Shown here: piece after piece, positions 1 to 9,327 of the stretch
How positions within the stretch are numbered: position 1 is the stretch's first letter
Layout of the letters: each line of letters opens with the position of its first letter
NCBI GenBank assembly: GCA_018266055.1
Contig: JAFDYT010000001.1
Span: 1-64,000, forward strand
Length of the DNA: 64,000 nt
DNA from: Bacteroidota bacterium
GTDB lineage: Bacteria; Bacteroidota; Bacteroidia; Cytophagales; Cyclobacteriaceae
Reading direction: 5' to 3'
Notes under the pieces: generated by a model
What the model saw: only the letters and a program-made list of their open reading frames with translations
Told to the model about the DNA's origin: nothing
Database searches by the model: none
Made by a program: the position numbers and the translations under genes

Positions 1-501
1 AGGGAGCCAAGCCCCGCTGATCACGGCGTAGAAATGCATCTGGTGCGCGGTGAAAAACCCGCCCAAGCTGTAGGCCAGGCCGATCACCAGTGCGATGCGG
101 GCATCGGTTCCGCGCTGCCGCACCAAGCGCATGAAGCCCACGCCGCCTATGATCACATACCCCAGGAAAAGGGCCTGCAGCGTATAAAGCGTATGGCCCA
201 CCGTGCCCGCCAGCAGGATGGACGGAGGATACCAAGCGGGTCCTTGCAGGTCGGCATAGATGGGATAGCCCGATTGCGCGTAGGGGTCCCAGAGCGGGAA
301 GTGCCCGTCCTGCATGGCTTGGGCAATGAACCAGCGCCACGGCATCCAGCAGTCCAGCGTATCGCCCTGCACCAGGCCGTAAGTGAACGAACTGATCGGC
401 CAATACACCAGGGGCACGATGGCAGCAATCACGGCCCAGCCCCATCGCCGTGCCCAAAGATCCACAGGACCACGCCGCAGTTCCGGGCCTTGGGCGTTCA
501 T
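1..501 (-). CDS. YfhO-like multi-pass membrane protein, N-terminal part (cut by window edge)
   Basis: The frame is open from an ATG at 501 to the window edge (167 codons, no stop). It begins [12 protein letters not shown], followed by a hydrophobic segment at about residues 22-32 and then a periplasmic-looking loop with [32 protein letters not shown] and a YPPS turn. Loops of the form W.P....G..P.W.P....G.P...D are typical of the first periplasmic loop of YfhO-like bacterial membrane proteins, a group related to GT-C glycosyltransferases; this is recognition from memory. Further membrane segments follow. The ATG overlaps the mutS stop as ATGA, so the two are translationally coupled. GC is above 60 percent and codons nearly all end in G or C, unlike most of the window. 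The substrate is unknown. Confidence 0.75.
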
Positions 502-1140
502 GCCTTCTTCAGCTTGGCCTTGCCCGCCCCGGCCATGCGCTTGATCTCGCTCAATTTCATCAGCGCCTCAACAGGCGTGAGGTTGTTGATGTCCACTTCC
601 TGGAGTTCATCGCGGATGGCCTCCAAGGCGGGATCGTCCAGTTGGAAAAAGCTGAGCTGGGGCTCACGGCCCAGGCCGGCCATCGGGGCGGGCACCGTGA
701 TGGGGCCATTCGTTCCGGCTTCTTCGCCGAGATTGCCCGCATGGGCCTGTTCCAGGTGCTTCAGCACGCGCTCGGCGCGTTCCACCACGGCATGGGGCAT
801 GCCGGCCATGCGGGCCACGTGGATACCGAAACTGCGGTCGCTGCCGCCAGGCACCAGCTTGCGGAGGAAGAGCACCTTGCCGCCGGCTTCGCGCACGGCC
901 ACGTTGGCGTTGCGGATGCGCGGGAAGGTCTCCGCCATGTCGTTCAGCTCGTGGTAGTGCGTGGCGAAGAGCGTCTTGGGCCGCAGCGGATGCTCGTGCA
1001 GGTACTCGGCGATGGACCACGCGATGGAGATGCCGTCGTAGGTGCTGGTGCCGCGGCCGATCTCATCCATCAGCACCAGGCTGCGGTCGCTCAGGTTGTT
1101 GAGGATGCTCGCCGTTTCGGTCATCTCGACCATGAAGGTC
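1..1140. other. High-GC segment with a sharp edge inside mutS
   Basis: Hand counts on 60-base lines give 62 percent GC (241-300), 75 percent (661-720), 67 percent (721-780), 73 percent (841-900) and 65 percent (1021-1080). They fall to 48 percent at 1141-1200 and 43 percent at 3001-3060. Reading mutS on the minus strand, codons before the edge include TTA, CGA, AAA, ATT and TTT, while from the conserved [11 protein letters not shown] motif onward almost every codon ends in G or C. The switch lies at about 1090-1145. It is either a misjoin of two genomes at a conserved motif or a recombined mutS. Confidence 0.8.
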
Positions 1141-3146
1141 GATTCGCCTCGCGATAAATTGTCAGACGCGCCCACGCGCGTAAAAATTTTATCGACAATA
1201 CCGACTAAGGCATGCTCGGCCGGCACGTAACATCCGATCTGCGCCATCAACACAATCAAGGCCGTCTGCCGCAGCAACGCCGACTTACCTGCCATGTTCG
1301 GGCCGGTGATGATTAAGATTTGTTGTGTCTCGTTGTCGAGATAGATGTCGTTGGGCACATAGCTTTCGCCCACGGGCAATTGCTTTTCGATCACCGGATG
1401 GCGCCCAGCTTTTATTGCGAGGCGCGTAGAGTCGCTGATCTCGGGCCGAGTGTAGCGGTTGGCATGGGCGATGGCAGCAAAAGACAACAGACAGTCGAGG
1501 TCGGCGATGATGCGCGCGTTGTGCTGAATCTGAGAAATAAATTCAGCGGTGTGGCGCACCAGCTCCTGAAAAATCTGCTGCTCAATTACGGTGAGCTTTT
1601 CCTCGGCATGAAGAATCTTTTCTTCATACACTTTGAGTTCCTCGGTGATGAAGCGCTCGGCATTTACCAGTGTTTGCTTGCGAATCCAGTCGTTGGGAAC
1701 TTTGTCTTTGTTGGCGTTGCTCACTTCCAGGTAATAGCCGAACACTTTGTTGTAGGAAATCTTCAGCGAGTTGATGCCGGTTCGCTCTACCTCGCGTTTC
1801 TGAATTTGCAGCAGATAGTCTTTTCCCGAAAAGGCAATCGCACGAAGTTCGTCGAGTTCGGCATTTACTTTTTCTTTGATGATGCCGCCCTGATGCAACT
1901 GCATCGGTGCATCTTCCTTCAGTTCGCGGTCAATTTTTTCGAAGAGAAATTCGCAAGGGTCGATCTGGCTTCCGAATTTTATTAATTCCGGTGCGCCGGA
2001 ATTCATCAGCACTTGCTTTACTGGCGCGATGGCATGAAGCGCTCTCTTTAGTTGCAGTAACTCGCGCGGGTTAACGCGTCCCACTGCCACTTTTGAAATG
2101 AGTCGCTCGAGATCAGCAATGTGCCGAAAGTTCTCCGCGATTTTTTCGGAGAGTTCGGTGTGTTCAAAAAAGTGAGCGACAGTGTTGAGCCGCTCGTCAA
2201 TACGCTGGCGTTCTTTCAGCGGCAGCACCATCCACTTGCGCAGGTTGCGCGAGCCCATAGGCGTGATGGTCTGATCGAGCACCTGGATAAGTGGCACGCC
2301 GCCATCGTTGTGCGAGTGAACGATTTCAAGATTACGGATCGTGAATTTGTCGAGCCACACATAATGGTCTTCGTCCAGCCGCGCGATGCCTGCGATATGA
2401 TGCGTGTGGTTATGCTCGGTGGCTTCGAGGTAATGCAGGATGGCGCCCGCGGCAATAATTGCTTCGATCATGCCGTCGATACCAAAACCTTTGAGGGTTG
2501 AGGTTTTGAATTGCCGCACTAATTTTTCCTGCGCGAAGTCGAGCGAGTACACCCAATCGTCAAGCGCAAAGGTGGCATACTCATCGGCGAAAAGTGAATC
2601 CAGCTTTTCGCGATACACTTTGCTGTAGATAATCTCCGCTGGCGTAAAATTCTGGATGAGCTTTAGGACATAACTTTCGTTTCCCTGTGCGGCATAAAAC
2701 TCGCCCGTGCTGATGTCAAGAAAAGAAATACCCCAGGTGGTTTTGCCGATGCATACGGAAGCCAGAAAATTATTTTGCTTTTTCTCCAGCACGTTGTCGT
2801 TGAAGGAAACGCCGGGAGTTACCAGTTCGGTCACCCCGCGTTTTACAATTCCTTTCACAAACCGAGGATCTTCAAGCTGATCGCAGATGGCTACGCGGTG
2901 GCCAGCTCGCACTAGTTTCGGCAAGTAGGTATCGAGCGAATGATGAGGAAATCCCGCCAAGGCTGTCTCCGACACTGAGCCGTTGCCGCGTTTGGTTAAA
3001 ACAATGTCAAGGATTTTGCTGGCCGTGATCGCATCTTCACCAAACGTTTCGTAAAAATCGCCTACACGAAACAACAGCAAAGCGCCAGGGTATTTCGCCT
3101 TGATCGCGTTGTATTGTTTCATCAATGGTGTATCTGCTGCGGCCAT
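498..3146 (-). CDS. mutS: DNA mismatch repair protein MutS
   Basis: MutS recognises base mismatches and small loops and starts repair with MutL. The 882 residues match the normal length. The mismatch-contacting F-Y-E motif is at residues 31-33 (GDFYETF). The connector, lever and clamp domains follow, then the ATPase with Walker A GPNMAGKS near residues 611-618, the [15 protein letters not shown] signature near 664-678 and Walker [13 protein letters not shown] near 690-702. The C-terminal helix-turn-helix tail [16 protein letters not shown] is present. The ATG at 3146 is chosen; M9 is an alternative. It lies 5 bp after a TATCTTTG box, so the message may be leaderless. The reading frame is intact, but the last 220 or so residues are encoded in high-GC DNA with different codon use, so the gene may be a chimera. 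Confidence 0.95.
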
Positions 3147-3186: not shown

Positions 3187-3813
3187 TTATTTTTCTTTCA
3201 ACAGAATCCGGATGTCTTCAATCATCCGGTCGATTTCTAGCGAGAGCGTACCATTGTACAAACCACGCAGGTGCCCGCGCTTGTCTACCAGCAGGCAATG
3301 TTCGGTATGCACAAAGTTGGTGGAGTCGCGGGTATAGCCTGCTACCTCTTCTGCAAAGTACGACTGCCGCGCGAGGGTGTAGATTTCACTCTGGCGGCCC
3401 GTCACCAGGCGCCATTGCGGGTAACGGATATCGTGTAGCTGCGCAAACCCCTGAAGCTGTCGCACGGAGTCGGCCCACGGCATCACCGAATGCGAAATGA
3501 GCATTACATTATCATTCGAATTAAATGTCTCTTGCACCTTGGCCAGGTGGTTTGTCATTTTCGGACAAATGCTCGGGCACGCGGTGAAGAAAAAATTGGC
3601 GACATAGATTTTCCCTTCCACGGTTTTGTTAGTGACTGCGCTTCCTTCCTGATCGGTAAAATGAAATGGGGCAATACGATGGAGCGTGTCTTCCGAAAAA
3701 TTTTCCTCGCCAGGCCACAGTGGTGTAAACTCAGCGCTGTGATAGTAAGGCAGGTGTTGTTCACTGCAACTTAGCAACACAATAAAAATCAGAATGGAGA
3801 AAATGAATTTCAT
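3187..3813 (-). CDS. SCO1/SenC-family lipoprotein
   Basis: SCO proteins are thioredoxin-fold copper chaperones that help build the CuA site of cytochrome c oxidase outside the inner membrane. From the ATG at 3813 the product is 208 residues. It starts [16 protein letters not shown], a lipoprotein signal with an LLSC lipobox. The copper-binding C-x3-C is present in [12 protein letters not shown], and the third ligand His is in [12 protein letters not shown]. The frame can be extended upstream to a TTG at 3831, but the ATG overlaps the stop of the MORN gene as ATGA, which fits translational coupling. It is the last gene of a three-lipoprotein operon (YHYH, MORN, SCO). Family assignment is firm; its target oxidase is not in the window. 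Confidence 0.9.
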
Positions 3814-4355
3814 CTCGAAGCGGACAAACAATTTTTTGAACCGGTGAGGCCGTACTTCCGTCCATTGCGTACCTGGTAGTTGGCTTTCAGTCGACCGTCA
3901 GCTTCCCACATTTTTTGTGTGCCCGATTCGTATCCGTTTTCATAATTGAAGTCGCGATACAATTTTCCATTGGCCTGCCATTCGGTTACGTTGCCGTGAT
4001 AGACATCGTTTTTGTAGTGATACACTAAGCGTGGCGTGCCATCGGCGTACCATCCTTTGTGCTCGCCTTCTTTTTTTCCTTGATGATAAACCCGCACTTC
4101 CTTCAGTTGGCGATTGTCGTACCACAACTTTAAAATTCCTTCTTCTTTCCCGTCAAGGTATGGTGTGAGTGAAGTTGTATCGCCCGCCGCGTTAAGAGTA
4201 AAAGCCCATCCTGAAAAAATTTCATTGCTTCGATACGTTACTCCTTCGCGGGTAATTATTTTTTCCGCGGAAGCGTTTACAAAAACAGCAGGAACTTTAC
4301 TTTGCCGACAGCTCGCGAGCAGCGCGATAATTCCAAACGCGAGAACCCGATTCAT
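3810..4355 (-). CDS. MORN-repeat (YwqK-like) lipoprotein
   Basis: The protein has 181 residues from the ATG at 4355 and begins with a lipoprotein signal ending in LLASC. From about residue 70 there are four to five short repeats of the type G...W...G......Y..G (YLDGKEEGILKLWYDNRQLK, HKGWYADGTPRLVYHYKNDV, WQANGKLYRDFNYENG), the MORN_2 / YwqK-type pattern. Such repeats form open beta-hairpin stacks; no enzymatic role is known. The start overlaps the stop of the YHYH gene as TGATG, and its stop overlaps the SCO start, so all three are coupled. A TTG one codon upstream could also serve. Its function is unknown; context suggests a partner in copper or oxidase biogenesis (inference). Confidence 0.85.
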   Translation of the reverse strand: MNRVLAFGIIALLASCRQSKVPAVFVNASAEKIITREGVTYRSNEIFSGWAFTLNAAGDTTSLTPYLDGKEEGILKLWYDNRQLKEVRVYHQGKKEGEHKGWYADGTPRLVYHYKNDVYHGNVTEWQANGKLYRDFNYENGYESGTQKMWEADGRLKANYQVRNGRKYGLTGSKNCLSASR

Positions 4356-6102: not shown

Positions 6103-9100
6103 ATGAAACGTTACGCTTTTTTACTTTTTGTCACTGGCCATTATTTCGCGCAATCGCAGACAATAGAAACTGTCATCCAGAAAGGTCACGAGCTGGCCGT
6201 GCTCACGGTAGCGGTTAGTCCCGACAGTAACTATGTCGCTACCGGCAGCCGCGATAAGTCGGCAAAACTTTGGGAGCTAAGTACGGGCCGCGAAGTGCGA
6301 AGTTTTCTGGGCCATCAGGCATCGGTAAACAGTCTAGATTTCAGTAGCGACGGAAAATTTATCATCACCGGAAACGGCGATCAGACCGCCAGAATCTGGG
6401 AAGTAGCGACTGGGAAGGAAGTTCTCTCGGTTCATCCGGATCAGGAGCGCATTACTGACGTGGTGTTCGATCCGAAGGGAAAATTTTTTGTGACTGTAGG
6501 ATATGGTCGCAAAGCGCGAGTGTGGGAATTTCCTTCCGGGAAAAAAATAGCTGAGACCGATGCCGACGGCTACGCCGGATCGAGCGGAGGCATCAAACTC
6601 GCGATCAGCAATAACGGCGAGTGGCTCGCCATCGGTGAAGACAACAAAGTGGCCACGGTTTACAAAACCGGATCATGGCAAAAAGCTTATGAATTTAATG
6701 TTCCTGAAGGATCATGTGGCGGCTGCTTTACGGATGTAGCATTCACGCCCGATAGCCGCTACCTCATCAAGGCATCGCACAACGGGCCGCTGAGAAAATA
6801 CAATTTGTCAAACGGCAAACTTGAATTTACGGCGAAGAAAGAAGTCGGCGATTTGAGCACCATAAACGTCAGCCGCGATGGAAAGCTAATGGTGCTTTGC
6901 ACAAAGAAAGAGTTTTCAATTTACACCGTTGACAAAGGCGATTCACTCAAAACAATCAATCCGGGAATTGAAGCAGAAATCAATGAAGCGACTTTCAGCG
7001 CCGACGCGAAAAAAGTTTTGCTTGCCTGTGACGACAATCGCGTGGTGATTTGGGATTTGGCTAAGAACAAAAAGGCGGGCGAACTCACCGGCTTTCTCAA
7101 TCAGCGCGACAAAGGCGGGTTGAATTACGATCCCAACTCGTATTGGGATTCGTACATTGCCAAATACGTGCGGTTCAAAAATGATTTGCTCCTAAGTCGT
7201 GATAACAAAACACTTCTCAAAGGAAAATTTGGAACAAAAGTAAAACGGTGGGATATCGCCACCGGCAAAACCGAGATGGAATACGCCGGACATAGTAAGG
7301 CCGTGCTTTGCTATCAATACAGCCGCGATGGCAAGAAGCTGATTACCGGTGGAGGCGAGGGAACGATCATTGTGTGGAATGCAGAAACCGGCGACACTCT
7401 GCGTGTGATCAAAGCCTACCGAGATCCGGTGTTTGATGTGAGCTTCAGCAACGACGAATCAAAAATTGTGAGCAGCAGTTGGGATGCGACGATGATGATT
7501 CACGACGCAGCCACCGGCGCGCAGCTGGAGTATTTTAAGTTGACAGGTTCTGCTTACAAAGCGCAATTCACACGCAACGATTTGTACCTCGTCACGGCCA
7601 ACTTGCCGACGGGCTTGCAACTCCTGGAGATCGATACACAAAAACCTATCCGTGAATTTGTAGGCCACACCGAGACCATCGCCGTCATTCAGCTTTCGCA
7701 GGATGGAAAAAAACTCATGAGCGCCAGTTGGGACGGATCGATTCGTTTGTGGGATATCGGCACCGGACTGATGGAGAAAAAATTGGTGGGTCACGCAGGA
7801 GCGGTATATGCGGCAATGTTCAATCCGTCGGAGAAATTTATTTTTAGCGCTGGCGCCGACAGGATAATCCGCCAGTGGGATGTATCCACAGGCAAAGTGA
7901 TAAAAACGTGGAAAGGGCATCAGGCCGAGATCACCAGCCTGCAATTAACCTCCGATGAAAAAATGCTGATTAGCCACAGTGTAGATGGCGCCACCAAATT
8001 CTGGGATTTGAATTCTGACAAAGAATTTTTTGAACACATTCACTTTGGTGAAAAAGAATGGATGGTGAAAAATCCCGAAGGTTATTTTAATGGAACCCAG
8101 GAAGCGCGCAAGTTCATTCACTTTGTGGATGGAATGAAAACGTACTCGGTCGATCAATTCTTTGATGAGTATTACCGTCCCGACTTGCTTCCGAAGATTT
8201 TTCAAAACCGCGGCGGCGACGATGGCTTTAAAAGTCTGCAAGGCAAATTGCAAAAGTCTCCACCACCTTCAGTGAAGGTGGCTACATTGCTTACCTCCGA
8301 TCCCGCCAAGGCCGAAGTATTTATAAAGATTACTGACAACGGTGCGGGTGCAGATAACCTGAAATTATTTCACAACGGAAAGTCGATCGTTATTGACAAA
8401 TCGGCGCTGAAACTTCCTTCCGGGAAAGATCAATCTACCGTGTATCGACATGTGGTTTCGCTGGTGGGTGGCACCAATACATTTTCCGCGACTGCGCGAA
8501 ACAAAGACAACATCGAATCGGATGCAGCTTCGGCCGAGCTGTTTTCTGAAATCACGGGAAAGACCAGCACGTGCTACATACTCGCGGTGGGCATCAATCA
8601 ATACAAAAACCCGCGTATGATACTTAACTACGCCAAACCTGACGCTGAGTCGTTTGAAAAGATTGTAGATGAGCGCGGCGCACAACTTTACAAGAACCTG
8701 GAAGTGCACACGCTCTTTGATGCCGAGGCATCGCGCGCGGCGATCTTGAGTAAACTCGACGAACTAGCCACGAAAATTCATCAGGAAGATGTGTTCATTT
8801 TTTACTACGCCGGTCACGGCAGTATGGTAGACGACCGATTCTTTTTTATTCCGAGCGAGAGCCTGCGGCTCTATGACTTAAGCTCGCTGCAACGAGAAGC
8901 GATTGAAGCCAATGTGTTGCAGGAGAAATTCAAAAACATTCATGCGCTCAAGCAACTCATTGTGATGGATGCGTGCCAGAGCGGTGGCTCCGTGGAGTTG
9001 CTGGCGTCGCGCGGAGCCGCAGAAGAGAAGGCCATCGCGCAATTGTCGCGCAGCGCAGGCATTCACGTGATGGCGTCGGCGGGAAGCGAGCAGTTTGCCA

Positions 9101-9327
9101 CGGAGTTTGCTGAGCTAGGCCATGGTTTGTTTACTTACCTGCTCGTAAAAGCGTTGCAGGGAGACGCTGACGGTGCACCGAAAGACGGCAAGGTGACCAT
9201 CTATGAATTGAAATCGTACCTCGATGATCAGGTGCCGGAACTCACACGCAAGTTGAAAGGCAAGCCGCAATATCCTTACACGTTTTCACGCGGTCAGGAT
9301 TTTCCAGTGGTGATTGAAAAGCCCTGA
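6103..9327 (+). CDS. WD40-repeat protein with C-terminal caspase-like (C14) protease domain
   Basis: The protein has 1074 residues. It begins with a likely signal peptide (MKRYAFLLFVTGHYFAQSQ). Residues 25-640 carry about twelve WD40 repeats, seen as KLWELSTG, RIWEVATG, RVWEFPSG, VIWDLAKN, KRWDIATG, IVWNAETG, RLWDIGTG, RQWDVSTG and KFWDLNSD, enough for two propellers. A linker and an Ig-like stretch follow (about 715-810). The caspase domain spans about 820-1070, with catalytic His905 in FYYAGHGS and Cys958 in VMDACQSGG. Such proteins cleave after basic or acidic residues in other systems; the substrate here is unknown. The signal peptide implies a location outside the cytoplasm, which argues against a cytoplasmic cell-death role. 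It follows cdaA. Confidence 0.9.
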   Translation: MKRYAFLLFVTGHYFAQSQTIETVIQKGHELAVLTVAVSPDSNYVATGSRDKSAKLWELSTGREVRSFLGHQASVNSLDFSSDGKFIITGNGDQTARIWEVATGKEVLSVHPDQERITDVVFDPKGKFFVTVGYGRKARVWEFPSGKKIAETDADGYAGSSGGIKLAISNNGEWLAIGEDNKVATVYKTGSWQKAYEFNVPEGSCGGCFTDVAFTPDSRYLIKASHNGPLRKYNLSNGKLEFTAKKEVGDLSTINVSRDGKLMVLCTKKEFSIYTVDKGDSLKTINPGIEAEINEATFSADAKKVLLACDDNRVVIWDLAKNKKAGELTGFLNQRDKGGLNYDPNSYWDSYIAKYVRFKNDLLLSRDNKTLLKGKFGTKVKRWDIATGKTEMEYAGHSKAVLCYQYSRDGKKLITGGGEGTIIVWNAETGDTLRVIKAYRDPVFDVSFSNDESKIVSSSWDATMMIHDAATGAQLEYFKLTGSAYKAQFTRNDLYLVTANLPTGLQLLEIDTQKPIREFVGHTETIAVIQLSQDGKKLMSASWDGSIRLWDIGTGLMEKKLVGHAGAVYAAMFNPSEKFIFSAGADRIIRQWDVSTGKVIKTWKGHQAEITSLQLTSDEKMLISHSVDGATKFWDLNSDKEFFEHIHFGEKEWMVKNPEGYFNGTQEARKFIHFVDGMKTYSVDQFFDEYYRPDLLPKIFQNRGGDDGFKSLQGKLQKSPPPSVKVATLLTSDPAKAEVFIKITDNGAGADNLKLFHNGKSIVIDKSALKLPSGKDQSTVYRHVVSLVGGTNTFSATARNKDNIESDAASAELFSEITGKTSTCYILAVGINQYKNPRMILNYAKPDAESFEKIVDERGAQLYKNLEVHTLFDAEASRAAILSKLDELATKIHQEDVFIFYYAGHGSMVDDRFFFIPSESLRLYDLSSLQREAIEANVLQEKFKNIHALKQLIVMDACQSGGSVELLASRGAAEEKAIAQLSRSAGIHVMASAGSEQFATEFAELGHGLFTYLLVKALQGDADGAPKDGKVTIYELKSYLDDQVPELTRKLKGKPQYPYTFSRGQDFPVVIEKP

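What the first reader, a model, noticed from the sequence alone, without database searches (positions are those of the whole stretch)
1000..1200. Sharp composition break inside an intact mutS frame
GC falls from 65-75 percent to about 45-50 percent within roughly 50 bp, at the highly conserved [11 protein letters not shown] motif. On the high-GC side nearly all codons end in G or C; on the other side TTA, CGA, AAA, ATT and TTT are common. The adjacent YfhO-like gene has the same high GC. The reading frame is unbroken and the motif order is right. This is either a chimeric assembly joined at a conserved stretch or a real homologous recombination that replaced the MutS C-terminus and its downstream gene.
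Basis: seen in the sequence. Interest (0 to 1): 0.8.

Follow-up and report, generated by a model that had tools for sequence, protein, structure and literature searches.

The report
Assembly chimera inside mutS gene
The end of this DNA contig is most likely a stray piece of another bacterium's genome wrongly glued on by the assembly inside a conserved repair gene; the gene's true other half sits at the end of another contig of the same genome, so this is an artefact and not biology.

Summary
The composition break is real, but it is best explained as an assembly error, not recombination. The window begins at base 1 of contig C11 of its genome, so the high-GC stretch is a contig end. The genome's own MutS C-terminus exists: the last ~500 bases of contig C18 encode 166 residues of MutS, and the contig stops in mid-gene in the matching orientation. 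The last 22 bases of C18 are identical to window 1032-1053. Joining C18 to C11 there gives one open 864-aa MutS, 79-85% identical to nine host-genus genomes; the window's own version is 72-77%. In relative G001, mutS is followed by the same genes as on C18. Window 1-1072 resembles an organism of another order: 98% DNA identity to G461 over 26-1130, with 645 bases exact at 428-1072 and identity breaking at 1073. Residues 699-882 are 100% identical to G461's MutS. The junction is therefore at 1032-1072, not at the [11 protein letters not shown] motif (1110-1142), which is on the host side. Reads could not be examined; a mixed population carrying a real recombinant is the main rival left, at about 2%.

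The parts
1..1031 (.). Foreign high-GC contig tail resembling another order (genus g36, near G461): 3' part of its mutS and the start of the neighbouring gene
   Evidence: 98% DNA identity to G461 over 26-1130; exact over 428-1072; contig starts at base 1
1..501 (-).
   Evidence: ORF; the same gene lies next to mutS in G461 (98% aa) and G363 (80% aa), 2 of 2 foreign loci compared. Pfam gave no match to this partial protein, so the name YfhO is not confirmed here
498..1053 (-). Foreign C-terminal part of the chimeric mutS (residues 699-882 and stop)
   Evidence: 184 of 184 residues identical to G461; 49-53% to nine host-genus genomes
1032..1072 (.). Junction interval: 1032-1053 is identical in C18's end, the window and G461; at 1073 the window stops matching G461
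   Evidence: 22-base exact match to the last 22 bases of C18, present once in the window; mismatch list and exact runs against G461
1073..3146 (-). Host's own mutS, N-terminal ~690 residues
   Evidence: residues 1-698 are 78-84% identical to nine host-genus genomes, 53-54% to two foreign-genus genomes
1110..1142 (-).
   Evidence: position read; in 1073-1142 5 of 8 diagnostic sites show the host-genus state and 3 the foreign one
3187..3831 (-). SCO1/SenC gene next to mutS, used as host synteny marker
   Evidence: Pfam PF02630; next to mutS in G031, 1 of 11 host-genus loci compared

Best explanation
An inter-organism chimera made by the assembly. Two bacteria of different orders in the same sample share a conserved stretch of mutS (at the GTSTYDG codons, 22 to 41 identical bases). 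At that stretch the assembler continued the host contig (C11) along the other organism's sequence for about 1.05 kb and then stopped, leaving the host's true continuation as the end of contig C18. The true host locus is most likely C18 joined directly to C11 from about 1054. Shown: the foreign resemblance of the tail, the native-type second half at C18's end, the overlap, and that the two ends fit into one open gene of the host-genus kind. Inferred: that the joining took place in the assembly of mixed reads, that both organisms were in one sample, and that C18 and C11 are neighbours in the real genome.
For: C11 starts at window base 1. C18 (416,690 bp) ends at 416,690 inside mutS, with 166 residues of a C-terminus on the same strand. 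The last 22 bases of C18 equal window 1032-1053; among 42 contig ends (terminal 1500 bases), C18's end is the only one that shares 21-mers with C11's start. The joined gene is open, 864 aa, 79-85% identical to 9 of 9 host-genus genomes compared, versus 72-77% for the window version, and has no comparable composition step (LLR 2.6). A tenth and eleventh host-genus genome, G010 and G034, agree: their C-termini are 82% (166 residues) and 87% (98 residues) to C18's part but 51% and 62% to the window's. In G001 mutS is followed by the same Gfo/Idh oxidoreductase, sigma-factor-like and desaturase-like genes as on C18; in G031 too, with SCO1 on the other side of mutS. The tail is 98% identical in DNA to G461 with 645 exact bases ending at 1072. 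At sites fixed in 8 foreign-genus sequences and differing from the base of at least 7 of 10 host-genus sequences, the window has the foreign state at 38 sites and the host state at none in 781-1072, and the host state at 38 and the foreign state at 1 in 1143-1489; sites with a third base are not counted. Only 1 of 42 contig ends of this genome, C11's start, has more than 60% GC in each of its first four 250-base pieces.
Against: No reads were available, so spanning pairs and depth are untested. In 1073-1142 the diagnostic sites are mixed, 5 host to 3 foreign; this stretch is conserved. Synteny support comes from few relatives: of 11 host-genus loci compared, the C18 oxidoreductase lies next to mutS only in G001, follows after a ~640-base gap holding an ORF in G031, lies further off in G011 and G007 and was not found in the stretch in the other 7, some of which are cut by contig ends; SCO1 lies by mutS only in G031. 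No genome of the same species was found among those searched; the best full-length MutS match is 78% in amino acids. The 1073-2122 stretch is itself slightly outside the tetranucleotide range of the window (0.389, control maximum 0.364).
Confidence: 0.97

Rival explanations
1. A real, very recent homologous recombination replaced the mutS 3' end and its neighbour in part of the host population; the assembly kept the recombinant on C11 and the unreplaced form on C18.
For: The frame is unbroken and the join is at a conserved stretch; mosaic mutS genes are known in some bacteria (recalled; papers with these terms were seen only as a search listing). A mixed population would also leave two arms.
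Against: The native-type arm is present in the right orientation at C18's end with a 22-base overlap. The tail is foreign-type from 1072 down to the contig end, with no return to host sequence (for 26-1072). The two MutS types are only about 53% identical in the N-terminal part and 49% in the C-terminal part and come from different orders, with at most 41 identical bases at the junction if 1054-1072 is host sequence. None of this excludes a mixed population outright; only reads can.
Confidence: 0.02
2. Old horizontal acquisition of a mutS C-terminus fixed in the host lineage.
For: Only the composition break.
Against: 645 bases identical to G461 speak against an old event; the nine host-genus genomes compared by halves and G010 and G034 all have the C18 type of C-terminus, which is still present in this genome.
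Confidence: 0.005
3. Ordinary variation of codon use within a native gene.
For: The plain GC decline is gradual.
Against: The LLR of the GC3 change point is far above shuffles and above the other 22 long ORFs; the C-terminus is 100% identical to another order's protein.
Confidence: 0.002

Closest known systems
Inter-species chimeric contigs of metagenome assemblies
   Same: Sequence of two organisms joined at a shared conserved stretch, with the true continuation left as another contig end. [quoted passage not shown]
   Different: Nothing essential; here the chimera is only ~1.05 kb long, keeps the reading frame and sits in a genome scored 100% complete and 0.49% contaminated, so quality scores do not show it. 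That this genome is a metagenome assembly is inferred; no record name was seen.
Mosaic mutS genes from homologous recombination (recalled)
   Same: A mutS gene with two ancestries in one open frame.
   Different: The unreplaced native-type half is present at another contig's end, and the two sources belong to different orders.

Membership tests
Assembly chimera (inter-organism) | The two sides have different nearest relatives, switching at one point | tested here: met
   Residues 1-698 nearest the host genus, 699-882 100% to G461
Assembly chimera (inter-organism) | The switch lies in sequence shared by both sources | tested here: met
   22 bases identical in C18's end, window and G461 at 1032-1053
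Assembly chimera (inter-organism) | The true continuation exists elsewhere in the assembly as a contig end | tested here: met
   C18 ends at base 416,690 in mutS, matching orientation
Assembly chimera (inter-organism) | No spanning reads, or depth change at the join | not testable with these tools
   no reads available
Real recombination in mutS | Host sequence on both sides of the foreign stretch | tested here: inconclusive
   no return to host sequence is seen, but the contig ends at base 1, so what would follow is unknown
Real recombination in mutS | The replaced native segment is gone from the genome | tested here: not met
   native-type C-terminus present at C18's end
MutS (MutS1 type) | Domains I to V in order | tested here: met
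   PF01624, PF05188, PF05192, PF05190, PF00488 in the window protein; this holds for the chimera as for any MutS

The most novel reading that the evidence does not exclude
Part of the host population carries a real, very recent inter-order replacement of the mutS 3' end from a co-resident bacterium of genus g36, giving a hybrid MutS that might raise mutation rate.
Probability: 0.02. Interest if true: 0.6.

Novelty: not a real feature. Interest (0 to 1): 0.06.

Why it matters
It does not bear on biology. It is a clean example of a short, frame-preserving chimera that completeness and contamination scores do not show: left alone it can enter databases as a hybrid MutS and as evidence for inter-order transfer. 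It also suggests that contigs C18 and C11 are neighbours in the real genome.

Tried and rejected
Old or fixed transfer was rejected (645 exact bases; native-type half still present). Normal codon-use variation was rejected. A break at the [11 protein letters not shown] motif was rejected in favour of 1032-1072. A Pfam name for the neighbour gene gave nothing for the partial protein, nor for a stretch of the G363 locus. Rfam at gathering scores on the odd contig C5 gave nothing. The paper search on mutS mosaics was seen only as a listing with starts of abstracts and no paper from it was read; of the paper search one paper was looked into (passages).

Full report
Observation. The window holds an 882-aa mutS frame on the minus strand, 498-3146, with the five MutS domains in order. 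Its codon composition changes sharply: GC3 0.61 before and 0.87 after residue 668, LLR 28.7 against at most 11.5 in 2000 codon shuffles; in a scan of 23 ORFs of at least 350 codons it scores 29.7 and the next 5.0. The tetranucleotide profile of 1-1050 is far from the rest of the window (0.69, against a maximum of 0.364 in 113 control pieces) and nearer to G461 (0.32), while 1073-2122 is the reverse (0.389 to the window, slightly above the control maximum, and 0.639 to G461).

Position in the genome. The window is G000:C11:1-64000, so base 1 is a contig end; C11 is 413,838 bases long. The genome has 21 contigs and is scored 100% complete and 0.49% contaminated.

The missing native half. A search of the same genome for MutS domain V finds four places: the window, two other MutS-family frames on C8 and C14, and a fragment on C18. 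C18 is 416,690 bases long and the fragment reaches its last bases, so C18 ends inside that gene. The fragment encodes 166 residues beginning GTSTYDG and running to the stop codon, in the orientation needed to complete the window's gene. The last 22 bases of C18 are identical to window 1032-1053, a stretch present once in the window.

Joining test. C18 joined to the window from 1054 on gives one open frame of 864 aa. Against nine host-genus genomes it is 79-85% identical over 860-865 aligned residues; the window's own protein is 72-77%. In parts: the N-terminal 698 residues are 78-84% to the nine host-genus genomes and 53-54% to two foreign-genus genomes. The C18 part is 79-89% to the nine and 49% to the two foreign ones. 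The window's residues 699-882 are 49-53% to the nine, 88% to G363 and 100% over 184 residues to G461. G010 and G034, checked later, have C-termini 82% (166 residues) and 87% (98 residues, cut by the contig end) identical to C18's part and 51% and 62% to the window's. The joined gene has no comparable composition step (LLR 2.6; GC3 of the native C part 57.5%).

Gene order. C11 plus C18 would give SCO1, mutS, a Gfo/Idh oxidoreductase, a sigma-factor-like and a desaturase-like gene. In host-genus genome G001, mutS, the oxidoreductase, the sigma-like and the desaturase-like gene follow one another, with no SCO1 found in the stretch; in G031 all five are in this order, with a ~640-base gap between mutS and the oxidoreductase that holds an ORF of up to about 170 codons. 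In the other nine of 11 host-genus loci compared, the oxidoreductase lies further off (G011, G007) or was not found in the stretch (7; in G003 the sigma-like and desaturase-like genes follow mutS without it), and some stretches are cut by contig ends. So the order is conserved in part of the genus only. 'Sigma-like' and 'desaturase-like' are my labels from the sequences and were not scanned.

Source of the tail. A search of 395 genomes of the class found a foreign genus (g36 in family f29; listed as same class, not same order) with mutS and the same neighbour gene matching the window's start as one piece, for example 7-1130 in G363 and 2-1130 in G240. Of 45 genomes of that genus searched, 44 match, and G461 is the best at 98% over 26-1130. 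Against G461 the window has 10 mismatches in 26-427, none in 428-1072 and then 10 in 1073-1140. The named-genome search puts the group in Flavobacteriales (best record 90% in amino acids, 'Flavobacteriales bacterium isolate SJ6'; capped list).

Where the join is. Sites fixed in eight foreign-genus sequences and different from the base of at least seven of ten host-genus sequences show the foreign state at 38 and the host state at 0 sites in 781-1072, mixed states in 1073-1142 (5 host, 3 foreign), and the host state at 38 and the foreign state at 1 in 1143-1489; sites where the window has a third base are not counted. With the mismatch pattern to G461 this puts the join at 1032-1072. The [11 protein letters not shown] codons (1110-1142) are then host sequence that happens to be GC-rich, which is why the composition step looks later than the true join.

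Reading. A real recombination fixed in the genome would have taken the native half away; instead the foreign piece runs to the contig end and the native-type half waits at the end of another contig with an exact overlap. This is what two organisms' reads joined at a conserved stretch would give. [quoted passage not shown] Reads were not available, so a mixed population with a real recombinant is left at about 2%.

Other contig ends. Of 42 contig ends, only C11's start stays above 60% GC in each of its first four 250-base pieces. The 4.6-kb contig C5 begins with a 103-residue core histone (Pfam PF00125, E 1.2e-45), so it is probably a eukaryotic contaminant in the same genome bin.

Three statements were changed: the synteny claim was narrowed (G031 has an extra ORF between mutS and the oxidoreductase), the claim that other host-genus genomes lack the foreign C-terminus was limited to the 11 compared by halves, and the test 'host sequence on both sides' was set to inconclusive because the contig ends at base 1.

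Noticed in passing
L159 (G000:C5, 4564 bp), 1-312 +: Contig C5 of the same genome starts with a core histone (Pfam PF00125) and carries a lysine-proline-alanine-rich ORF; it looks like a eukaryotic contaminant contig in this genome bin.
   Followed up: partly
G461:C266 end (L122) and window 1-26: The contig of the foreign relative G461 ends at the place that matches window base 26, within 25 bases of where C11 ends; both assemblies break at nearly the same point of the neighbour gene.
   Followed up: no
Contig ends of G000: Several contig ends share many 21-mers (C15 head with C21 head, C2 head with C7 tail, C10 tail with C2 tail), as expected of repeats breaking the assembly; C11 head and C18 tail share only the 22-base stretch.
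   Followed up: no
window 6103-9327 +: A 1074-aa ORF with WD40-like repeats followed by a caspase-like C-terminal part (my reading of the translation; not scanned).
   Followed up: no
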